From Pirellula sp. (GTDB lineage: Bacteria; Planctomycetota; Planctomycetia; Pirellulales; Pirellulaceae), in the NCBI GenBank assembly GCA_021299695.1, contig JAJTEK010000043.1, positions 1 through 33,226 on the forward strand: a stretch of 33,226 bases of DNA. Direction: 5' to 3'. Each line of letters begins with the position of its first letter. Positions within the stretch are counted from its first letter, which is position 1. A program made the position numbers and the translations under genes. Shown here piece by piece: positions 2,730 to 33,226 of the stretch. The notes under the pieces are model-generated. The model worked only from the letters and a program-made list of their open reading frames with translations, had not been told where the DNA came from and made no database searches.

Positions 2730-3887
2730 CTAGTTGACCAACCCGAGTTTCGCTGAGAGGCTCAGAAGCTCGTTGTTGCTGCTTTCGGGACGTACAAAGC
2801 GGGTGTATTCCCTGCTCGCATCGATGCACCCGCCGTCGGCGTAGATCCCAGGTCCGTCCTGGATTTTGCGCATCGCGTTCAAGACTCTCGCATGCTCTAT
2901 GGGATCTTGCTCGGTTCTACGCATGTGTTCTTGGACTCGTTTCTCGTCCATCCGCCAAATTCCCTCGGGGTCTTGGTAAGCTCCATGACGCCAGTGATAG
3001 ATCTCTAGGCACTTGAGGTCGAGCGTAAAGCTCTTGTCACGCTTCCAGAAATCAGAGAACACCCCGCGTCCCATATAGAACAACCAGGAGCCTTCGAACC
3101 CCAGCGCCTCGGCCGACGCGGGATCTGGATTCTTGAACCACAAGCGATCGCCAGGTACGTAGTAGGACTCTGGCAAAGGCTCCTGCCTTGATCCGTACTC
3201 GATCATGAACACATCATGGAACTCGCGGGATCGAATCGCGCGCCGTTGGGCTTGGGCCTCGAGCTTAAGGTACAGGCTCGGATGGACTCTCAAGGCTTCT
3301 TCGGCGACACCCAGTGCTACAACATACTCCGTGGCGCGATAGCAGGAGAAGGAGTAGACGGTCCCATGTTGGCCCGGTTGAGTGGCCAGTCGCAACGCCT
3401 CGATCAGGGACTTGCCTGAATTGACAATGAATCCCCTTTCTTCATCATAAGTCCAATACTCCTCGGGCCGTTCGGCGCCGTAGGCATCGAAGGCCAGAAA
3501 TGTCTTGCTCGCTGCCCTTGCGATATTGGTTCGGATTCTGATCGAGGACTCCCACTCTTGAAGGCTCGGGTATACAAAGCACTTCGGAGAGGCCAGCATG
3601 GCAAGAAGGGTTTCCTCTTCGAGCAATTCGTCGGCAGGTTTGCCGAAATGTTGCTCGAGCTCTTGGGCAAGCATGAGCGTGTTGTATTGCGGGGTCCAAC
3701 GCGCGAAGGCTTGGGGGGTTAGCCTCAAGCGCACACCGGATCTCGCTTCGTGGTGGCTCGGTTCGATTTCGATCCAAGTTCGGATCGAATCGAGCGCGAG
3801 CCACCCGGTGGCCGTGTCCAATGCCCTAAGGTCTTCGATAAAAACGCCTTCGGGTGTCGCGAGAGAGTCGACAGTGGAAGTGCTCAT
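2730..3887 (-). CDS. Tgl-type protein-glutamine gamma-glutamyltransferase homologue
   Basis: A 385-residue cytoplasmic protein without signal peptide. Residues about 112-280 follow Bacillus Tgl (the transglutaminase that cross-links the spore-coat protein GerQ): ESSIRIRTNIARAA, FLAFDAYGAERPEEYW, YSFSCYRATEYVV with the nucleophile-position Cys182, then PGDRLWFKNPDP (245-256) and FEGSWLFYMG (264-273). Bacillus Tgl has its catalytic Glu187 in RGENVILLG; the aligned position here is Ser267, so the known Cys/Glu dyad looks incomplete. The protein is about 140 residues longer than Bacillus Tgl, with extra N- and C-terminal parts. It starts 5 bp after recA and is surely co-transcribed with it. The homology was recognised by motif order from memory; activity is uncertain. 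Confidence 0.65.
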   Translation of the reverse strand: MSTSTVDSLATPEGVFIEDLRALDTATGWLALDSIRTWIEIEPSHHEARSGVRLRLTPQAFARWTPQYNTLMLAQELEQHFGKPADELLEEETLLAMLASPKCFVYPSLQEWESSIRIRTNIARAASKTFLAFDAYGAERPEEYWTYDEERGFIVNSGKSLIEALRLATQPGQHGTVYSFSCYRATEYVVALGVAEEALRVHPSLYLKLEAQAQRRAIRSREFHDVFMIEYGSRQEPLPESYYVPGDRLWFKNPDPASAEALGFEGSWLFYMGRGVFSDFWKRDKSFTLDLKCLEIYHWRHGAYQDPEGIWRMDEKRVQEHMRRTEQDPIEHARVLNAMRKIQDGPGIYADGGCIDASREYTRFVRPESSNNELLSLSAKLGLVN

Positions 3888-3892
3888 CGGAA

Positions 3893-5020
3893 TCAGGAAT
3901 CGGCTTCTGTTTCGTCTTCGACTTCGTCGGCAGCACCTGGACCTTCAGGCCCTGCGTATCCGCCCGCCGCGACGATGCCTTGGCGTATCTCCTTGGCGAC
4001 TTCTTTGTTTTCCATCAAGTAGTTGCGTGCCTTTTCCTTGCCTTGGCCGATGTAGGCATCGCCGTACTTGTACCAGGCCCCACTCTTGGTGAGGATCTTG
4101 TGGGCGATGCCCAGGTCGATCAAGTCCCCTTCGTAGCTGATGCCATTGGTGTGCATCATGTCGAACTCAGCGACTCGAAAAGGTGGCGCAATTTTGTTCT
4201 TGACGATCTTGGTTTTGACCCGTTGACCGACGACCTCTTCCCCATCCTTGAGCTGCCCAATCCGACGGACATCGACACGTACCGAAGCGTAGAACTTCAA
4301 AGCCCGACCGCCAGGGGTCGTTTCGGGACTGCCGTAGCTCATCCCACCGATCTTCTCACGGATCTGGTTGATGAAGATCACAGAGGTCTTGCTTCGGGCG
4401 ATCGCTCCTGTGAGCTTGCGCATCGATTGACTCATCAATCGTGCTTGAAGCCCGACGTGCGCATCGCCAATCTCTCCCTCGAGTTCCTGGCGCGGAACCA
4501 GCGCCGCGACCGAGTCGATCACGACCACATCGACCGCGTTGCTCTTGACGAGCATCTCCGTGATTTGCATCGCCTCTTCACCACTGCTCGGTTGGCTCAC
4601 GAGCAACGTATGGAGCTCCACACCGAGCTTCTTGCCCCAGCTAGGGTCAAACGCATGCTCCGCATCGATGATCGCCGCGATACCACCAGCCTTTTGTGCC
4701 TCGGCGCACACGTGCAAGGCAATCGTGGTTTTACCGCTCGACTCTGGGCCAAAGATCTCGATAATCCGACCGCGTGGCAAGCCGATCCCACCGAGGGCCA
4801 AGTCCATCGAGAGCGACCCAGTACTGATCCCTTGGATCTTCAACTGCGTCTCGCCCCCCAAAGGCATGATCGAACCCTCGCCAAATTGCTTTTCAATCTG
4901 CTGCAATGTGGACTTCAGGTTCGGCTCCTTTTTCAGGATGCTCTCCAAGCCAGTTACCGGCTCGACTGGTGCTTTGTCTTTCTTTTTAATCCCAGAACCT
5001 TTTCCTGATGATGCAGCCAC
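3893..5020 (-). CDS. recA: RecA recombinase
   Basis: A 375-residue RecA: ATP-driven strand exchange in homologous recombination and co-protease for SOS induction. Visible features are the N-terminal polymerisation segment with [16 protein letters not shown] (residues 40-55), Walker [10 protein letters not shown] (91-99), [12 protein letters not shown] (Walker B), the L2 region [22 protein letters not shown], and an acidic C-terminal tail ([10 protein letters not shown]). Length is slightly above the usual about 350 because of a lysine-rich N-terminal extension. The ATG start is preceded by AAGGAGA at a good distance. The downstream Tgl-like gene begins 5 bp after its stop. No LexA box of a known type was recognised upstream; a GTGAC-N7-GTCAC inverted repeat lies 122 bp upstream of the start. 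Confidence 0.98.
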
Positions 5021-6618: not shown

Positions 6619-7950
6619 TTACCGCGGATCATGGCGCAAATCCAACACGCGTTTGGATTTGCCCTCCATCCTCGGCAGACTCCCCTCGTCGAGGCGTCGG
6701 ACTTCGACTCGCAACTGCAAGCGACTCAAAAGATCCTTCGATAACTGCTCCTGAACGTCCTCTCGGGCCTCGATCTGCAAATGCAGCTCGTCGAGCGCTC
6801 CGGATTTGCTCAAGACCAATCGGTACTCGCCAATGCTCGGATACTCCCGGACAATCGCATCGATGCTCGAAGGAAAAATGTTCACGCCCCGTACGACGAT
6901 CATCCCATCGAGCCGCCCCAAGATGCCTTGCTCGAGCCTCACGAAAGAGGTACCCCAGGTGGCCTGTTGGGCCGTCGATGTCGGGTAACTCGGCCGGACC
7001 AAATCGCCGGTGCGGTATCGCAAAACCGGTGCGCCGAGGCGCCCGAGACTCGTCAGAACCAGCTCCCGAACCTCCGACTTGCCCAGATCCGATGGGGTCA
7101 TCGTCTCTGAGGATACCGGCAGGTACTCGGCGATGAATTCCGTTTCGATCACGTGCAAGGCTCGACCGTCTCGGCTGCCAAAACCCCAGGGACCGATTTC
7201 CGTAGCCCCCGCATGGTCCATGACCTGAGCCCCATAAAGTTCCTCGATCGCTTGGCGAACGCTCGGTACGCTCCCGCCGGGCTCACCGGCGACAAACACG
7301 CATCGGATCGAGGATTGCGCTAGCCCCTTGCCGATCGATTCGGCCAGTTGCCCTAGGTGGATCGCATAGCTCGGGGTGCTGAACAAAACACTCGGCTCTG
7401 AACTGTGGATCAAATCGATCCGGGCCTCGCTGGACATCCCGCCCGATGGGATGACCATGCAGCGGCGTTGCAAACACGCATCGTGGGCGCTCCAAAAACC
7501 GATGAACGGGCCGAACGAAAAAGCCATCAGCACCCGATCGTGCTCGGTAATCGCACAAGCATCCAAAACATACTGCCAAACGTCGACCCACCATTGCCAA
7601 TCCGACTCGGTATCGAGGATCACCATCGGTCGGCCTCGCGTGCCGCTAGTCCGATGGTAGCGACGGTACTCGTTCGCTGGGTAACTGTGATGCTTGGCTA
7701 CCCCGGAAATCTGATCGCTGATCCACTCGGATTTGCTCGTCAGTGGGAACTGGGCAAATTGATCGAGCGAACTGAGTTCGAGTCGATCGGTTTGATACCG
7801 TTGGCGGTAAAACGCGTTCTCGGGCAGGACCTTGGCCAACAAGGCATTGAGCCTTTTGAGTTGCCAAGCCTCCAAGGCATCGCGGCTAGCTAGCTGCCAA
7901 CGCTCCCGGTTTTCTCGCTCTGCAGTAAAATTCGCTTGGGTGGAACTCAT
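6619..7950 (-). CDS. PaaK-like adenylate-forming ligase (phenylacetate-CoA ligase family)
   Basis: A 443-residue ANL-superfamily enzyme of the PaaK group, which activates a carboxylic acid as acyl-AMP and then usually forms a CoA thioester. It shows the AMP-binding P-loop TSGTRGRP (residues 101-108), AGATEIGPWGF, YRTGDLV, the hinge segment GRLDGMIVVRGVNIFP, and a C-terminal LPRMEGKSKRVLDLR (425-439) with the expected catalytic Lys431. Length is normal for PaaK (about 430-440). No phenylacetate pathway genes are nearby, so the true substrate is unknown. It lies 6 bp after the DUF4105 lipoprotein gene with an AAGGA ribosome-binding site, implying an operon with two envelope proteins, which is odd for a catabolic ligase. 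Confidence 0.85.
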   Translation of the reverse strand: MSSTQANFTAERENRERWQLASRDALEAWQLKRLNALLAKVLPENAFYRQRYQTDRLELSSLDQFAQFPLTSKSEWISDQISGVAKHHSYPANEYRRYHRTSGTRGRPMVILDTESDWQWWVDVWQYVLDACAITEHDRVLMAFSFGPFIGFWSAHDACLQRRCMVIPSGGMSSEARIDLIHSSEPSVLFSTPSYAIHLGQLAESIGKGLAQSSIRCVFVAGEPGGSVPSVRQAIEELYGAQVMDHAGATEIGPWGFGSRDGRALHVIETEFIAEYLPVSSETMTPSDLGKSEVRELVLTSLGRLGAPVLRYRTGDLVRPSYPTSTAQQATWGTSFVRLEQGILGRLDGMIVVRGVNIFPSSIDAIVREYPSIGEYRLVLSKSGALDELHLQIEAREDVQEQLSKDLLSRLQLRVEVRRLDEGSLPRMEGKSKRVLDLRHDPR

Positions 7951-7956
7951 AAGTCC

Positions 7957-8877
7957 TTATTGCCGACGGATCCGCTTCGAAAATTCCGGATCGTCCGCGT
8001 AAGCCTGAGCCAATGGGTTGATCTGCGCCTGGCTCCGAGCATACTCGAAGGTGCCTTGGATTTCGAGTAGCCCAAGTTCATAGGCCAATCGATCCGAATG
8101 CCCCGGCAACAACACCCGCCAATCGACCGGAACACGGCCCGGTCGAAGTTGATTGACATGGTCGACCAAATTGGTCGTGCAGTTGTTCGTCAGCGAATCG
8201 TAGTACTCGGGATCCTTATGCAGTTTATTGACCCTCGCGAGCATGTCGACCAAAAGATCTTGGACTTGCTGAGGATCCGCCCTACCGGGATACAAGTAAA
8301 CGTCGACGTTGCGTACGAGAGTGCGCAAAAGGATCATGTCCCGTTCGTCAGCGACAATGTAAGTCAGGGGAAATCGACGCCCTGCGCCGGCAACGGCCGA
8401 ATAGTCCTGGTCATGCTCCAGACGAGCTTCCACCGAAACCACAAAGTGCCGACCATCGGCGAGCCCGAAACTGAGCATCGTATGGGCGAGCAAGGCCGTC
8501 TCTTTGAAGGGAACAATGATGAAATCAACGGTCTTTACGTCCGAAAGAGCAAAGCGCAAATCGTAGTGACGCACATCATAGTCCGACTCGCTGCGGTATC
8601 GGCAGTTCCGCACGTTGCGTATCGTGATCGTCTCGTCGTCGAACTCCACATACGGAAGAATCATCAAGTCGGCGCGCCACGGTCGACGGTGGACGCGCTC
8701 GAGCAACGGTTCGGTCCCACCACTCTTGAGGAATCCAACGAGCGAGTTTTCACTCAAACCCTTGGCAAGCCGAGTCGAGCACCCCAGGAAGCAAAGATGC
8801 AAGAGTCCCAAAGCCAGCAGTTGAGCCAACCCTGCAAGCTTGCGACTACCGCGATGGGCTTTGACCGGAGAAGTCAT
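7957..8877 (-). CDS. DUF4105 (Lnb N-terminal periplasmic domain) lipoprotein
   Basis: A 306-residue protein. A basic N-terminus and hydrophobic stretch (15-32) end in a lipobox-like FLGC, giving a lipidated Cys33, so it is probably anchored in an envelope membrane. The body matches DUF4105 / Lnb N-terminal periplasmic domain: ETALLAHTMLSFGLADGRHFVVSVEAR, then LTYIVADERDMI, and the strongly conserved DSLTNNCTTNLVDHVN. His132 and Cys233 are conserved in the family and could be catalytic, but the activity is unproven. Its ATG lies 31 bp inside the end of the upstream proline-rich gene, so translation is probably coupled. It belongs to the three-gene minus-strand operon ending with the PaaK-like ligase. 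Confidence 0.85.
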   Translation of the reverse strand: MTSPVKAHRGSRKLAGLAQLLALGLLHLCFLGCSTRLAKGLSENSLVGFLKSGGTEPLLERVHRRPWRADLMILPYVEFDDETITIRNVRNCRYRSESDYDVRHYDLRFALSDVKTVDFIIVPFKETALLAHTMLSFGLADGRHFVVSVEARLEHDQDYSAVAGAGRRFPLTYIVADERDMILLRTLVRNVDVYLYPGRADPQQVQDLLVDMLARVNKLHKDPEYYDSLTNNCTTNLVDHVNQLRPGRVPVDWRVLLPGHSDRLAYELGLLEIQGTFEYARSQAQINPLAQAYADDPEFSKRIRRQ

Positions 8878-16462: not shown

Positions 16463-16487
16463 GTCGACCTACCCCCTAAGTCGACTT
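16461..16487. terminator. Hairpin between convergent genes
   Basis: AAGTCGAC (16461-16468) and GTCGACTT (16480-16487) form an 8-bp stem that covers the stop codons of the OYE gene (+) and the acyltransferase gene (-). No T run follows, so this may help to end transcription but is not a classic terminator. Confidence 0.35.
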
Positions 16488-18218
16488 GGGCGCTCTGCGG
16501 CCGTTTAGAAAGACTCCAAGCCAAGTGTTTCTGACCAATAGTTGGTAACTCAAGAGCAGCAGTCCAATCGATGCGAAGCTGATGATAAGCAACTTCAAAT
16601 ACGCATTTCCATCGGTCCAAGCCAACTGCGATTGAAGCACGATCACCAGCGGAAGATGCGCGACATAAAGCCAATACGAGGAGTCGGAGAGATAACGAAT
16701 CCAAGGCGTCTGCTCCCGAACGCAACTTCGGAATAAACCGATGCAAGAGATCGACATGCACCAAGCAAACAGCGACTGGCTCAAGACCGAAAGCGGCAAG
16801 ACCCATCCCTTGCCAATCCACTGGTCTCTCAACCCATACTTGCCCAGATTGATTTCCAAAGCGATCGGAAAGAGAACCAGCATCGTCCATGGCAAGAGCC
16901 ATCGCCAGCTCTGACCCAATCGAGCGCCGGTATCCTGCCCGAGGTAATAGCCAACGCCGAACAAAAAGAAAACCGCATAATAAGCGAAAACCTGCGGTGC
17001 TGGGATCAATCCGACGGACGTATCCGGACCAAAGATAAATCCGATCGTCCCCATGAAATAAAGTGGGACCATCGTCACGAGCATCCAGAACAACAAGGCC
17101 ACCGGCGAGTAAAGCCCAAGCGAACTCCACTCGACAGGTTGTTGGCTCCAGAACGAACGGATCGAACCAAAGACCCATTGAAGGATCACAAGAAAGACCG
17201 CAAACCACCACAGGAACCACAAAAACCAAAGAAAAGAAAATGCAGGATAAGTCGCCAACCACATCGCGATCGCCCTAGGGGTGCTCTGTGTCGGTGCCGA
17301 AGCATCCGGAGAACTCCCAACGGGCACCTGCTCCACATCGGTCTGCTTGGCCGGCTCGATCAAGTTCCGTTCGACCAATGCGTTTTCAATCAGCGCTCTG
17401 CCATCCTTGATATCGGCCAACTCCCGTCGGACCGAGAGCAACCCACCGATGTACTGGACCATCTTGGTATCGACCCGAAGGCTGTTGATGGGGGTCTCCC
17501 CATTGCTGTTCCTCTTGGTGATGTCAGCCCCTTGCTCAAGCAGATACTCCACGAGTGGGGAGTTGCCGAAGAACATCGATGCGTGCAGAGCGGTGTTCCC
17601 GTCAGGGTTGCTCAAACTCGGGTCGCATCCCATCTCGATCAATACACGAACGCTCTCGAGATCTCCTTGGATCGCCGCCCAGCTCAAAACGGTCGTCTGA
17701 AATTGCGGGTGTAGGTCCGTAAAGGCGGTTCCGTTCTCAAGGTGGACTCTGACCGCATCGGACCGATGCTGCTGAATGGCTACCCAAATACTCTGCTCAG
17801 GCGGTAGACTCTCGGTTGCCATCAAGCGGCGCTGATTGCTCTCCGAGAGCCCCTTGAGGATCGCCAAATTGCACAGCGGAACCAACGTCATCGAACCGAC
17901 CAAACAGGGCAAGAAGACTCGTCGAAACCGATGCGATACGAGTGCAAGGGCGCCCCGTTTTTTCCAAAGCATCGCGGTGAAAAAACCGCTGATGATAAAG
18001 AACAACGGCATGCGAAACCCATGCACCCAAGACTGAAAAACATACATCGCGCCGTTGGCCGACGGATCCTGGACAAACCAAGGAAAGCCCAACGCAAGCG
18101 ACAGCGCTCCATGGTAGACGATCCCGAGCATCATGGCGCTTGCTCGCAATGCATCCAAATCATGCCGCCGCTCAGTTGGGCTTGTCGGTGAACTCAAGAA
18201 CTCTCTCCCCTTCATCAT
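16476..18218 (-). CDS. Acyltransferase-3 membrane protein with ankyrin insertion
   Basis: A 580-residue polytopic membrane protein. The start (RRHDLDALRASAMMLGIVYHGALSL, with conserved His36) and MPLFFIISGFF match acyltransferase family 3 (OafA/OpgC-like), which transfers acyl groups to extracytoplasmic glycans. After the third hydrophobic segment (about 103-121), residues about 143-245 are soluble. They read as ankyrin repeats: TVLSWAAIQGDLESVRVLIE, GNTALHASMFFGNSPLVEYLLE and GADITKRNSNGETPI. Membrane segments resume from about 315 (FLWFLWFLWWFAVFLVILQW) and run to the C-terminus (YLSDSSYWLYVAHLPLVI is a family hallmark). The ankyrin block replaces a loop, presumably for protein binding. The partner and acyl acceptor are unknown. 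It begins next to the 48-bp repeat spacer. Confidence 0.85.
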   Translation of the reverse strand: MMKGREFLSSPTSPTERRHDLDALRASAMMLGIVYHGALSLALGFPWFVQDPSANGAMYVFQSWVHGFRMPLFFIISGFFTAMLWKKRGALALVSHRFRRVFLPCLVGSMTLVPLCNLAILKGLSESNQRRLMATESLPPEQSIWVAIQQHRSDAVRVHLENGTAFTDLHPQFQTTVLSWAAIQGDLESVRVLIEMGCDPSLSNPDGNTALHASMFFGNSPLVEYLLEQGADITKRNSNGETPINSLRVDTKMVQYIGGLLSVRRELADIKDGRALIENALVERNLIEPAKQTDVEQVPVGSSPDASAPTQSTPRAIAMWLATYPAFSFLWFLWFLWWFAVFLVILQWVFGSIRSFWSQQPVEWSSLGLYSPVALLFWMLVTMVPLYFMGTIGFIFGPDTSVGLIPAPQVFAYYAVFFLFGVGYYLGQDTGARLGQSWRWLLPWTMLVLFPIALEINLGKYGLRDQWIGKGWVLPLSVLSQSLFAWCMSISCIGLFRSCVREQTPWIRYLSDSSYWLYVAHLPLVIVLQSQLAWTDGNAYLKLLIISFASIGLLLLSYQLLVRNTWLGVFLNGRRAPKST

Positions 18219-22656: not shown

Positions 22657-23964
22657 ATGGACTACAACACTCGCTTGGTCATTCTCGGTTGCGCAATGCT
22701 CGGAGCCGCCTGCGGTCTCGTCGGGGTCTTCCTACTGCTGCGCAAACGCTCGTTGATCGCCGATGCGATCTGCCATGCTTCTCTCCCGGGCATCGCCATC
22801 GCTTTCTTTGTCAGCCTCGCCTACGGCGGCCAGGGCCGCCAACCCCTGCTCCTCCTGGCCGGTGCGGCCCTGAGCGGATGCCTCGGTGCTCTGGCCGTCA
22901 TGGCCCTGCGCCGCTTCACCCAACTCAAAGAAGACGCCGCGCTGGGGATCGTCCTGAGCGTCTTTTTTGCACTCGGTATGGTTCTGCTGAGCCTCGTCCA
23001 ACAAACCGAGTCGGGGAACGCTGCAGGACTCGAAGGATTCATCTACGGCAATACCGCAGGCATCGTCGCCCAAGACGCAAAACTTATCGCGATCGTCTGC
23101 GGAGCGGTCTGCGCCGGAGTTCTCCTGCTCCGAAAAGAACTCCAACTCCTGTGCTTCGACCCTACCTACGCTTCGGCACAAGGCTGGCCGGTCCTGATCC
23201 TCGATCTGGTCCTCATGGGCTTCGGACTGCTGATCGTGATCGTCGGTACCTCGATCGTCGGGGTCCTGCTGGTCGTGGCCATGGTGGTCATCCCCCCGGC
23301 GGCCGCTCGCTTCTGGTCCGATCGACTCGGCTGGAACCTCCTGACGAGCAGCTTCCTGGGCATGACCTCAGGAATCCTCGGCGCGCTGTGCAGCTATCGA
23401 TCCGAACACCTCCCCTCTGGTGCCTCCATGGTCCTCGTCGCCGCCGGACTCTTCGCCCTGAGCCTCCTGTTCGGTTCGCGCCACGGGATCGTCTGGGGCT
23501 GGAGACAACGGTTTCAATCCCGATGGTTTGCCGACCAAGAACACTTGCTGCGCGGAACCTTCGAACTCCTCGAAAGCGATCGCAAAGCCCCAGCCATCCA
23601 CGGCGATCTAAGATCCGAGCCGGTCGATAAACTCCGCCTCGCGAACCAATTGCACTGGTCGATAAACCACCTCGATCGCATCGCGAAAACTCTGACCCGA
23701 AAAGGTTGGATCATCGATCGTAACCCCAACCAATTCGTCCTGAGCCCAGCCGGTATCCAACAATCGCACCGAGCCGTCCGACGACACCGACTCCTCGAAC
23801 TCTACTTCTCCCACTGGGCCGACCTCAGCCCCGATGCGATCGATCGATGCGCCGACTACACCGAACATTCTCTCGATGATGAACTCCTAGCAAGACTCGA
23901 ACGCGATGCGATGGACCTGGGAAACCGAATCGACCCACCACCGAGTATCCACCCGGTTGGCTAA
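22657..23964 (+). CDS. Metal ABC permease fused to a DtxR-like domain
   Basis: A 435-residue fusion. Residues 1-275 are an ABC-3 family permease (ZnuB/MntB-type, for zinc, manganese or iron): VGVFLLLRKRSLIADAICHASLPGIA, then LKEDAALGIVLSVFFALG and GTSIVGVLLVVAMVVIPPAAARF. Residues about 290-430 are a winged-helix and dimerisation region like DtxR/MntR iron- or manganese-dependent repressors: ANQLHWSINHLDRIAKTLTRKGWI, LSPAGIQQSHRAVRRHRLLELYF and ADYTEHSLDDELLARLE. The HxxxDE-like metal ligands of DtxR appear partly kept (EHSLDDEL). No ATPase or solute-binding gene is adjacent, so partners must lie elsewhere. The fused domain may sense metal or gate the channel. Confidence 0.88.
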   Translation: MDYNTRLVILGCAMLGAACGLVGVFLLLRKRSLIADAICHASLPGIAIAFFVSLAYGGQGRQPLLLLAGAALSGCLGALAVMALRRFTQLKEDAALGIVLSVFFALGMVLLSLVQQTESGNAAGLEGFIYGNTAGIVAQDAKLIAIVCGAVCAGVLLLRKELQLLCFDPTYASAQGWPVLILDLVLMGFGLLIVIVGTSIVGVLLVVAMVVIPPAAARFWSDRLGWNLLTSSFLGMTSGILGALCSYRSEHLPSGASMVLVAAGLFALSLLFGSRHGIVWGWRQRFQSRWFADQEHLLRGTFELLESDRKAPAIHGDLRSEPVDKLRLANQLHWSINHLDRIAKTLTRKGWIIDRNPNQFVLSPAGIQQSHRAVRRHRLLELYFSHWADLSPDAIDRCADYTEHSLDDELLARLERDAMDLGNRIDPPPSIHPVG

Positions 23965-30327: not shown

Positions 30328-31861
30328 ATGCCCCCCAAAAACACTACCCTCCTAACAGCCATCTTCATCATCACCCTTTGTCGCCTACTGGCCAACGCGA
30401 CCGAGCGCCAACAACCCCCGAACATCGTCATCATCTACGCCGACGACTTAGGGTTCGGAGATCTATCGACTTACAACCCCCAATCCGCCTACACCACCCC
30501 ACGGATCGACCAGTTGGCAAACCAAGGGATCAAGTTCCTCGATGCTCACAGTCCTTGTACGATTTGCTCACCCTCGCGGTATGGACTCCTCTCAGGCCAA
30601 TTGGTCTGCCGAACCGGTCGCAAGCCCACCGCGTTCGAGGGTCCCGGCGGCCCAAGCTACCTTGCGCCCGGAGAACTGACCCTGGCGCAAATGCTCCAGC
30701 AACGCGGGTACCGAACCGGAGTGTTCGGCAAATGGCATTTAGGGCTGACCTGGTTCGATCAAGACGGAAAACGTCTTGCGGGTGGTTTCGAGACCCCCTT
30801 GCAGATCGACTATGCAAAAAGCACCCCCTTGGTCGACGGCCCCAACGCAAGAGGTTTCGACGAATAACGGCAACGTACCGGTCGGTGCGACCAAGCGACA
30901 TCGCAGCGATTCGTTGCCGAATTTAGCGGGCAAGTGGCTCTGGGACAACGATGAGGGATGGATGGCAGAAGGTTACCGATTCGCCGACGCGGATTTGTTA
31001 TTCTTTGACAAGACCGCTGAGTTCATCCGCGCGCATCGCATGCAAACCCCCGAGAAACCCTTTCTAGCGATCCTCTCGACACAGATCGCCCATGCTCCGG
31101 TCCTGCCCGCCGAAGAATTCCGCGGCAGCACCCGAGCAGGCCCGCGAGGGGATTTCGTCCGCGAGCTCGATACACTCACCGGTCGATTGCTCGATTTGCT
31201 CGAGGAGTTGAGCATCGACGAGAACACCCTGGTGATATTCAACGCCGACAACGGAGCAGAGACACTCCACACGCACTGGATGCGGACCGATCACCGACAC
31301 GATCCGGCCGGAGGATTCAGGGGGATGAAGCGTGACGGATGGGAAGGAGGCCATCATGTCCCAATGATCATGCGATGGCCCAGCAAGATTCCAGCGGGTC
31401 AGACATCAGACCAGATGATCAACACGACCGATCTTTTTGCGACGTTGGCATCGATCATCGATTTCGAGTTGCCCGACGAAGTCGCGGTCGACAGCTACGA
31501 CATGCTGCCGGTACTCTTAGGTCGCCAGCCCTCGGATCGTTCGGTAAGACCTTGGATGCTCACACAAAGTTTCCGAGGGGAATTCCAATTGCGAGTTGGG
31601 AAGTGGAAGCTACTAGCGCATAAAGGGTCGGGGGGTAACGACTACAGCCGGGGGGAACTGCGAAGGTACGAGTTGCCCGAGGACGCAATGGAAGCTGCAG
31701 GTCAGCTATACAACCTCGAATTGGATCCAGGCGAGACAAGGAACTTGTACAACACCGAGCCGGTTCGAGCCGAGGAGATGGTCGAGGCATTGAAGCGGAT
31801 GACGGCGCCCGAGTCTGGGCGAAGTGCCCCCGAGGGCCGCAAGCCCCTGCGATGGCAGTAA
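30328..31861 (+). pseudogene. Sulfatase broken by an internal deletion
   Basis: Two frames encode one arylsulfatase-type enzyme. Part one (30328-30867) has a signal peptide, PNIVIIYADDLGFGDL with the metal-binding Asp pair, and the formylglycine site CSPSR (Cys80). It ends after DGPNARGFDE at a TAA. Part two, in another frame to 31861, resumes with NGNVPVGATKRHRSDSLPN, AILSTQIAHAPVLP, VIFNADNGAE, GMKRDGWEGGHHVPMIMRWP and a normal C-terminus. Intact relatives have about 18 residues (an FFG...P...Y segment) between GFD and this point, so a short deletion of non-triplet length near 30865 removed them and shifted the frame. Everything else is well preserved, so the lesion is recent or an assembly error. 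Confidence 0.85.
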
Positions 31862-32271: not shown

Positions 32272-33226
32272 TCAAGCCTGCTCACCCGACTCCGTCGCAC
32301 GATGAGCAGAACTCAGGAGGCGGAAGCCCAGGGCGCTGTCCCGAAAGCCCGGAGCGCTCCTGAGCCGACAAGCCGAACGCAGATTCTGCGCGGGGTTGAC
32401 CCAACTCCCGCCGCGCAACACGCGCCTCGTGCCCTCCGTAGGCCCAATAGGATCCTCCACACAATCGACAGGTTCGGCTGGATACTCTCCATACCAATCC
32501 TGACACCACTCCCAAACGTTCCCGAACATATCATACAACCCCCAAGCGTTCGGCGATTTTTGAGCCACTTTGCGAGTGCCGCCGTTCTTTTCCTCAGATT
32601 GAAGATCTTCCAACCATGTCATTTCCATACTCTTCTCCAGATCGTACCTGAGTCCCGAATTCCCTCCGTACCATGCGATCGAATCAAGTATTTCAGCTTT
32701 GGTTTGATCTCTAGATTTTAAATCCAAATCCCCCACATACGTATCACCCGTCGTTCCGGCCCTACACGCATACTCCCACTCGGCCTCCGTAGGCAAGCGA
32801 AACTGCAATCGCTCCCATCCATCGATAAGCCCCTTAGCATGCGATGGGTAATCTCTTGCTAATCGCTCATTGAGTTTCTTCGCAAATCCAACTGCATCCT
32901 CCCAACGAACTTGCTCCACCGGTCGCTCAGGATCCAGAAAGTAACTCGGCTTATCACCCATCAGCGCTGTCCATAACCCTTGCGTACAAGGTGTATCGAA
33001 CATCCAGTACCCATGGGTAATGATCACCTCATGCTGCGGTCCTTCGTCGCCTCGGCCATAATCCTTACCCGGCGGTGATCCCATGACAAATCGCCCAGGT
33101 GGGATCCAACGTATCCGCTGACGCACAGGCTTGACCTCAAACGTCGCATAGAGCCCATACGAATCGCTTCCGAAATCCACGGCCCAAGTCGGCTTTGCAA
33201 GCCGATCGAACTGGTACCCTTCCTGG
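32272..33226 (-). CDS. SUMF1-fold protein (FGE-like), cut by the window edge
   Basis: The frame is open to the end of the window; the GTG at 33180 is not a likely start, because QFDRLAKPTWAVDFGSDSYGLYA reads continuously through it. The visible part matches the SUMF1/FGE-sulfatase domain (PF03781): RIRWIPPGRFVMGSPPG, GYWMFDTPCTQGLWTALMG, RPVEQVRWEDAVGFAKKLN, FRLPTEAEWEYACRAGT, NAWGLYDMFGNVWEWCQDWYG and TRRVLRGGSWVN. The two active-site cysteines of true formylglycine-generating enzyme, which follow GGS, are missing: here GGSWVNPAQNLRSACR. It is therefore probably not the sulfatase-maturing enzyme, in spite of the sulfatase next door. Upstream domains lie outside the window. Confidence 0.88.
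   Translation of the reverse strand, partial: QEGYQFDRLAKPTWAVDFGSDSYGLYATFEVKPVRQRIRWIPPGRFVMGSPPGKDYGRGDEGPQHEVIITHGYWMFDTPCTQGLWTALMGDKPSYFLDPERPVEQVRWEDAVGFAKKLNERLARDYPSHAKGLIDGWERLQFRLPTEAEWEYACRAGTTGDTYVGDLDLKSRDQTKAEILDSIAWYGGNSGLRYDLEKSMEMTWLEDLQSEEKNGGTRKVAQKSPNAWGLYDMFGNVWEWCQDWYGEYPAEPVDCVEDPIGPTEGTRRVLRGGSWVNPAQNLRSACRLRSAPGFRDSALGFRLLSSAHRATESGEQA

What the first reader, a model, noticed from the sequence alone, without database searches (positions are those of the whole stretch)
2730..5020. A transglutaminase (Tgl) homologue co-transcribed with recA
The recA stop and the Tgl-like start are 5 bp apart on the same strand. Tgl is known from Bacillus spore-coat cross-linking. A homologue in a non-sporulating planctomycete, tied to the main recombinase, hints at DNA-damage-linked protein cross-linking or another new role.
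Basis: partly seen in the sequence, partly recalled or inferred. Interest (0 to 1): 0.75.

Follow-up and report, generated by a model that had tools for sequence, protein, structure and literature searches.

The report
Transglutaminase-like enzyme tied to cyanophycin genes
The gene behind recA really does encode a transglutaminase-like enzyme, but its nearness to recA looks like a local accident of a few related species, while its relatives elsewhere keep company with a membrane acyltransferase and with genes for the nitrogen-storage polymer cyanophycin, which points to an unstudied step in handling that polymer.

Summary
In detail: a 385-aa ORF (2730-3887, minus) starts 5 bp after recA and matches PF20085 (94 bits). 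Its AlphaFold model (pLDDT 92.6) finds only Bacillus-type Tgl structures. It is not spore-coat Tgl proper: equivalog score 29.7 of 307 bits, and of the known key residues only the cysteine (Cys182) remains.

The recA link is local: adjacent in 7 of 14 tgl-bearing genomes of a 27-genome genus, a neighbour in none of 80 loci outside it. LexA is over the cut-off in 1 of 27.

What recurs instead is an AT3 membrane acyltransferase (20 of 175 adjacent positions versus 1 of 888 others; in the genus tgl 14, AT3 14, shared 13) and, in Betaproteobacteria, the cyanophycin cluster. Both genes are found behind cphA'-cphA and behind ABC-DUF1854. In 200 Burkholderiales genomes 16 of 17 tgl genomes and 22 of 22 AT3 genomes carry CphA (81 of 200 overall; kinship not corrected).

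Best reading: an accessory cyanophycin enzyme with altered transglutaminase chemistry. Chemistry is inferred. Against it: tgl and AT3 barely co-occur in Burkholderiales (p = 0.10), and CphA is universal in the window's genus, so there the link is indirect.

The parts
2730..3887 (-). tgl-like gene, 385 aa, PF20085 subfamily
3342..3344 (-). codon of Cys182, the expected nucleophile, invariant in 79 of 79 aligned proteins
3345..3347 (-). codon of Ser181, at the place of Bacillus Glu115
3093..3095 (-). codon of Glu265, invariant in 79 of 79; candidate replacement general base, two residues before the place of Bacillus Glu187 (Ser267)
   Evidence: role inferred
3888..3892 (-). 5-bp junction between recA stop and tgl start; same length in G010, G018, G014
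3893..5020 (-). recA, 375 aa
5269..6315 (-). GAPDH gene upstream of recA; order GAPDH-recA-tgl shared with G010, G018, G014

Best explanation
The ORF encodes a member of a distinct, uncharacterised subfamily of the PF20085 (Tgl) fold. Shown: the family and fold match, the invariant Cys182, the replacement of the other known Bacillus catalytic residues in the alignment, and the gene associations. Inferred: Cys182 forms an acyl-enzyme with a side-chain amide, assisted by Glu265 near the start of the neighbouring strand, and the enzyme works in cyanophycin metabolism, in some lineages together with an AT3 membrane acyltransferase, most likely by hydrolysing or exchanging (transamidating) the beta-aspartyl side-chain isopeptide of cyanophycin, or by joining its lysine-bearing side chains to a protein. 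Its place behind recA is a lineage-specific rearrangement that may borrow recA transcription but carries no DNA-repair function.
For: Fold: the only Foldseek hits with E up to 0.001 are 7c9j and 4p8i, both Bacillus-type Tgl. AT3 acyltransferase in 20 of 175 positions adjacent to tgl versus 1 of 888 others in 93 loci, in three arrangements, with gaps of -4 to 13 bp in six adjacent co-directional Burkholderiales pairs. Genus: tgl in 14 and AT3 in 14 of 27 genomes, 13 shared. Class sample of 297: 15 of 16 tgl genomes have an AT3 match versus 19 of 281. Cyanophycin: tgl beside the CphA/CphA'/ABC/DUF1854 cluster in 7 of 67 betaproteobacterial-type loci, in two separate tree clades; in L161, the one scanned, the ABC and DUF1854 proteins score far over the NCBIfam cyanophycin-associated cut-offs. 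In 200 Burkholderiales genomes CphA (E up to 1e-50) is in 16 of 17 tgl genomes versus 65 of 183, and in 22 of 22 AT3 genomes versus 59 of 178. tgl and AT3 fill the same slots: behind cphA'-cphA (tgl in G847, AT3 in G904; behind cphA at a contig end in G730) and behind ABC-DUF1854 (tgl in L149, L160, L161, L193, AT3 in G905). In the window's own genus AT3 abuts a CphA-like gene in G011. The window protein is 51% identical over 329 aa to the Thiobacillus thioparus protein in the cyanophycin cluster.
Against: CphA is matched in all 27 genomes of the window's genus, including those without tgl, so it says nothing there. In the window's genome tgl, AT3, CphA and the CphA-like gene lie on four different contigs. 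tgl and AT3 co-occur only weakly in Burkholderiales (4 of 17 versus 18 of 183, p = 0.10), and AT3 was found in only 14 of 39 genomes behind named tgl loci. 65 of the 93 loci have neither AT3 nor the cyanophycin cluster beside tgl. Of the 17 tgl genomes in the 200-genome sample only one has tgl beside CphA. Two of the 22 AT3 genomes (G755, G861) have CphA matches below the family cut-off, and one search scored at most 4 candidates per genome, so CphA may have been missed in others. The counts are not corrected for kinship: 15 tgl proteins called there fall into 12 clusters at 70% identity but 4 at 60%. No activity has been measured, and the replaced catalytic residues leave room for a different or absent activity.
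Confidence: 0.5

Rival explanations
1. DNA-damage-linked protein cross-linking: tgl is induced with recA and cross-links proteins after damage.
For: 5-bp gap to recA kept in four genomes and purifying selection on tgl, dN/dS 0.10-0.19.
Against: Linkage in only 7 of 14 tgl genomes of the genus and, as a neighbour, at none of 80 loci outside it; LexA over the cut-off in 1 of 27 genomes, not in the own one.
Confidence: 0.07
2. An ordinary cross-linking transglutaminase for an unknown structural protein, unrelated to cyanophycin; the cyanophycin statistics reflect shared kinship or lifestyle.
For: Family and fold match to Tgl; 65 of 93 tgl loci have neither AT3 nor the cyanophycin cluster beside them; Bacillus Tgl also works inside the mother cell (recalled).
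Against: Glu115, Glu187 and His200 of Bacillus Tgl align with Ser181, Ser267 and Phe280 in all 78 subfamily members aligned; without Glu115 or His200 the Bacillus enzyme has no detectable activity (PMC6490927, passages); repeated presence of tgl and AT3 in cyanophycin clusters.
Confidence: 0.25
3. A catalytically changed or dead Tgl fold that acts as a binding or scaffold protein, for example a granule-surface protein.
For: Only the cysteine of the known Bacillus catalytic set is kept in the alignment.
Against: Cys182, Arg184, Glu187, Asp247 and Glu265 are invariant in all 78 subfamily members, unusual for a dead enzyme.
Confidence: 0.15

Closest known systems
Bacillus subtilis spore-coat transglutaminase Tgl (PDB 4p8i; also 7c9j of Geobacillus)
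   Same: PF20085 family, fold, cysteine at the start of a helix, PGD and NPD motifs
   Different: 385 aa where the 4p8i chain has 242; Ser181/Ser267/Phe280 at the places of Glu115/Glu187/His200; different gene partners
Cyanophycin-metabolism-associated ABC transporter NF052233 and DUF1854 protein NF052234
   Same: Same gene cluster in seven betaproteobacterial-type loci; tgl follows the DUF1854 gene by 22-27 bp in four
   Different: tgl itself matched no cyanophycin-named NCBIfam model and is usually unlinked from the cluster
Isoaspartyl dipeptidases IadA, IaaA and cyanophycin dipeptide hydrolase
   Same: Would act on the same type of beta-aspartyl bond if the reading is right
   Different: Named in PMC10206079 (passages); no sequence relation was tested here
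AT3 acyltransferases PF01757
   Same: The tgl partner scores 60-73 bits in PF01757 in the three members scanned, with invariant His and Arg residues
   Different: No NCBIfam model matched those three at E up to 0.001

Membership tests
PF20085 TGL | Score over the Pfam gathering cut-off (23.7) | tested here: met
   94.4 bits
PF20085 TGL | Tgl fold | tested here: met
   Model pLDDT 92.6; only 7c9j and 4p8i at E up to 0.001, TM by target 0.69 and 0.60
Spore-coat-type Tgl (NCBIfam NF002869 equivalog) | Score over equivalog cut-off 307 | tested here: not met
   29.7 bits
Spore-coat-type Tgl (NCBIfam NF002869 equivalog) | Catalytic cysteine (Cys116) | tested here: met
   Cys182, 79 of 79
Spore-coat-type Tgl (NCBIfam NF002869 equivalog) | Glu187 or Glu115 as partner | tested here: not met
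   Ser267 and Ser181 in 78 of 78 subfamily members, by alignment; Glu265 may stand in, inferred
Spore-coat-type Tgl (NCBIfam NF002869 equivalog) | His200 | tested here: inconclusive
   Ungapped position is Phe280 (78 of 78); the 7c9j piece seen ends at residue 199, so the place is taken from L068 and L074, which keep Gly-His
Spore-coat-type Tgl (NCBIfam NF002869 equivalog) | Gln-Lys cross-linking activity | not testable with these tools
   needs assay
SOS (LexA) regulon | LexA present in the genome | tested here: not met
   PF01726: none in G000 (95% complete); over cut-off in 1 of 27, weaker in 2 more
SOS (LexA) regulon | Conserved linkage to recA | tested here: not met
   7 of 14 tgl genomes of the genus; neighbour in 0 of 80 loci outside it
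Cyanophycin-metabolism gene set | Gene lies in cphA clusters in several lineages | tested here: met
   7 of 67 betaproteobacterial-type loci, plus G847; not so in the window's own genome
Cyanophycin-metabolism gene set | Restricted to genomes with CphA | tested here: met
   16 of 17 in 200 Burkholderiales genomes, all 16 over the family cut-off; exception G879, where the tgl match is a piece at a contig end. Uninformative in the genus, CphA match in 27 of 27. Kinship not corrected
Cyanophycin-metabolism gene set | Acts on cyanophycin | not testable with these tools
   needs assay

The most novel reading that the evidence does not exclude
A previously unrecognised step of cyanophycin metabolism: a transglutaminase-fold enzyme with a relocated catalytic glutamate remodels or cross-links the polymer's side chains, and in some lineages a membrane AT3 acyltransferase acts with it, so that the polymer or its pieces are modified, tethered or exported rather than only made and broken.
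Probability: 0.35. Interest if true: 0.78.

Novelty: new variant of a known kind. Interest (0 to 1): 0.6.

Why it matters
Cyanophycin is a nitrogen store and a biopolymer of industrial interest; the enzymes named for it in the paper passages seen here make the chain, cut the backbone and split the dipeptide (PMC10206079). Two further genes that travel with its synthetase, in two phyla, would open a question about modification, tethering or export of the polymer, testable in culturable betaproteobacteria. It would also show that a Tgl fold can keep only the cysteine of the known catalytic set and still be strictly conserved.

Tried and rejected
DNA-damage role: rejected for lack of conserved recA linkage and of LexA. 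Defence system: no PADLOC match for the window protein, the own AT3 or the Curvibacter Tgl. Other recurrent neighbours: a transglutaminase-core-like protein (named by eye) in 6 loci lies within one clade and was treated as shared synteny; most other recurrent neighbours were likewise not followed. AT3 neighbourhoods in the Pirellula genomes gave no constant third partner. G004 (AT3 but no tgl match) was checked for tgl behind recA: a terminator-like hairpin (by eye) and no tgl match in the 369 bp to the contig end, so that mismatch stays unexplained; the genome is 83% complete. L180 has recA 5.7 kb from tgl with eight genes between, taken as chance. Corrected on the way: a notebook entry put His200 on Asp279; counted without gaps it is Phe280. 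Left unused: the second structure prediction, two fold searches, viral-contig scans and search_dna_similar.

Literature: the ten searches, which paired transglutaminase with planctomycete and recA, with Bordetella and acyltransferase, with gene neighborhood and with cyanophycin, and cyanophycin with acyltransferase, DUF1854 and Pirellula, listed no paper whose title or start of abstract describes this association; the library holds open-licence PMC papers only and one search listed 15 of 268. Passages only were seen of PMC6490927, PMC10318531, PMC10206079, PMC13190842 and PMC7522526; term searches in PMC12509546 and PMC10687191 found nothing.

Full report
What is there. The window carries recA (3893-5020, minus) and, 5 bp behind its stop, a 385-codon ORF (2730-3887, minus). 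GAPDH lies upstream on the same strand, and the order GAPDH-recA-tgl recurs in G010, G018 and G014. The ORF matches PF20085 at 94.4 bits, NCBIfam's Tgl equivalog at only 29.7 of 307 bits, and solved chain 7c9j at 4e-6. It evolves under purifying selection: dN/dS 0.10-0.19 for the six pairs among G000, G010, G018 and G014, against 0.01-0.04 for recA. I see no signal peptide in its N-terminus (by eye).

Fold and active site. An AlphaFold model from 79 sequences has mean pLDDT 92.6 and pTM 0.92. Against the PDB, only 7c9j and 4p8i (Bacillus-type Tgl) have E up to 0.001, with TM-scores normalised by target of 0.69 and 0.60. Cys182 starts the helix 182-201, as expected for a papain-like nucleophile. 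In Bacillus Tgl the C116A, E115A and H200A variants had no detectable activity and E187A kept about 60% (PMC6490927, passages). In the alignment, Glu115 falls on Ser181, Glu187 on Ser267 and His200, counted without gaps through L068 and L074, on Phe280. These residues are the same in all 78 subfamily members (79 rows of A2 less the outlier L066), as are Cys182, Arg184, Glu187, Asp247 and Glu265. Glu265 lies two residues before the Glu187 place, so probably on the same face, and is my candidate for a moved catalytic glutamate; this is inference, as no coordinates were available.

Distribution. In the window's genus (27 genomes held; Pirellula by several record titles) tgl occurs in 14. In a phylum sample PF20085 was found in 8 of 392 genomes, the own one included; in a class sample a relative of the G430 protein in 16 of 297, three of them of the window's genus. 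A scan of genome contigs gave 430 coding matches, of which the best 80 were kept: 12 loci of the window's genus, one titled Schlesneria, and 67 that are nearly all Betaproteobacteria or unplaced Proteobacteria by title, at 45-55% identity. Two of the 67 are titled Akkermansia and one Rhizobium, but they sit among the others in the tree and are probably misbinned. In the tree the 67 form one group (100/98), the 13 Pirellula rows another (90/86), and 11 of 13 other planctomycete rows are sister to the 67 (99/96).

recA. tgl is next to recA in 7 of the 14 tgl genomes of the genus: gaps 5, 5, 5, 5, 152, 183 and 300 bp. In G019, G021, G017, G009 and G015 no recA lies in the 13 kb around tgl; in G005 and G008 tgl is cut by contig ends but has neighbours found in G019. 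Of 93 tgl loci examined (13 Pirellula, 13 other planctomycete, 67 betaproteobacterial-type; three Pirellula pieces, L063-L065, left out), recA was found in 8: the seven above and L180, where it is 5.7 kb away. Of the 80 loci outside the genus 61 have at least 3 kb on both sides. LexA is over the Pfam cut-off in one genome of 27, with two weaker matches, none in the window's. The recA neighbourhood therefore looks like a rearrangement in one subclade.

The AT3 partner. The commonest neighbour of tgl is an AT3-type (PF01757) membrane acyltransferase: 21 of 93 loci (4 of 13 Pirellula, 7 of 13 other planctomycetes, 10 of 67 betaproteobacterial-type), 20 at the adjacent position and one at the second. 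That is 20 of 175 adjacent positions against 1 of 888 others, Fisher p 1.5e-15, not corrected for kinship. It is divergent in Pirellula and in L135, L138 and L191, upstream co-directional in the other planctomycetes, and downstream co-directional with gaps of -4 to 13 bp in six adjacent Burkholderiales pairs. In the genus AT3 occurs in 14 of 27 genomes, 13 of them with tgl; mismatches are G008 (tgl only) and G004 (AT3 only). In the class sample 15 of 16 tgl genomes have an AT3 match against 19 of 281. Against this, in 200 Burkholderiales genomes only 4 of 17 tgl genomes have it against 18 of 183 (p = 0.10), and only 14 of 39 genomes behind named tgl loci (a fortieth was not held).

Cyanophycin. 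Seven of the 67 loci have tgl beside CphA, CphA', an ABC transporter and a DUF1854 protein. In L161 the last two score 1446 of 880 and 244 of 150 bits in NCBIfam's cyanophycin-associated models. The seven fall in two separate tree clades with different orientation. By the family's own cut-off (72 of 200 genomes) it is 16 of 17 and 20 of 22. At most 4 candidates per genome were scored, so CphA may be missed in some. The counts ignore kinship: 15 tgl proteins (G823 was missed by my gene caller, and the query's own G694 is left out) form 12 clusters at 70% identity but 4 at 60%, while 21 AT3 proteins (G694 left out) form 19 and 16. Among the regions read, tgl directly follows cphA'-cphA in one of 17 (G847), and AT3 lies beside the cluster in 4 of 22: G904, G730, G774 and G905. 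Tgl and AT3 use the same slots: behind cphA'-cphA (tgl G847, 35 bp; AT3 G904, 9 bp) and behind ABC-DUF1854 (tgl in L149, L160, L161, L193, 22-27 bp; AT3 in G905, 4-bp overlap). In planctomycetes AT3 abuts a CphA-like gene in G011, of the window's own genus, and in G634, which has no tgl match. All 27 genomes of the genus have a CphA match, 24 over the cut-off, so CphA cannot discriminate there.

Reading. Three elements, tgl, AT3 and the cyanophycin cluster, are joined pairwise in different lineages. The simplest account is that tgl and AT3 are accessory to cyanophycin. The bond that a transglutaminase fold would be expected to attack, a side-chain amide, is the type of bond that carries arginine in cyanophycin (abstract of PMC10206079). 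I therefore favour hydrolysis or exchange of that side chain, with tethering of lysine-bearing side chains to protein as the alternative. AT3's role, perhaps acylation of an exported product given the MsbA-like ABC transporter in the cluster, is speculation.

Limits. No activity, expression or phenotype has been tested. 65 of 93 loci have neither partner beside tgl. The window's own genome has tgl, AT3, CphA (in two overlapping ORFs) and the CphA-like gene on four contigs, so for the window itself the link is by family, not by neighbourhood.

Noticed in passing
window 16476-18158 (-): A protein in which an AT3 acyltransferase domain (two PF01757 stretches) is combined with ankyrin repeats at residues 126-217; unusual architecture. 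It was not among the tgl-associated AT3 matches.
   Followed up: no
window 30328-30867 and 30812-31861 (+): One sulfatase domain appears in two overlapping ORFs, as by a frameshift; an FGE-type sulfatase-modifying protein lies at 32272-33180 (-).
   Followed up: no
window 22657-23964 (+): ABC-3 metal permease fused to an iron-dependent repressor C-terminal domain.
   Followed up: no
L074:3134-4333 (G265): PF20085 domain behind an eCIS core domain (PF13699) in one protein, which looks like a secreted-effector arrangement.
   Followed up: no
L068:235-1647 (G161): A planctomycete PF20085 protein with a peptidoglycan-binding domain that keeps Glu-Cys, Gly-Glu-Asn and Gly-His motifs.
   Followed up: partly
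L066:4233-5444 and L067:5466-6998: A second divergent planctomycete PF20085 group with a Cys-Thr-Ser-Ala-Cys motif and a Glu at the Glu265 place.
   Followed up: partly
L293:6090-7406 and 7403-8818 (G000:C20): The window genome's cyanophycin synthetase is in two overlapping ORFs, while G010 has one of 909 aa.
   Followed up: no
L304:5225-7081 (G000:C213), L245:1010-2845 (G011): A 611-618 aa CphA-like protein that matches only to about position 562 of 871 of the synthetase model and so lacks most of the ligase end; second matches of this kind are listed for 25 of 27 genomes of the genus.
   Followed up: partly
L078 (G004), behind recA: In G004, which has no tgl match, recA is followed by a strong terminator-like hairpin (by eye) and a GAGCAC-type repeat at the contig end.
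   Followed up: partly
window 2730-2775 (-): The last residues of the window's Tgl differ from the NIELKDAQDVV-type tail of its closest relatives.
   Followed up: no
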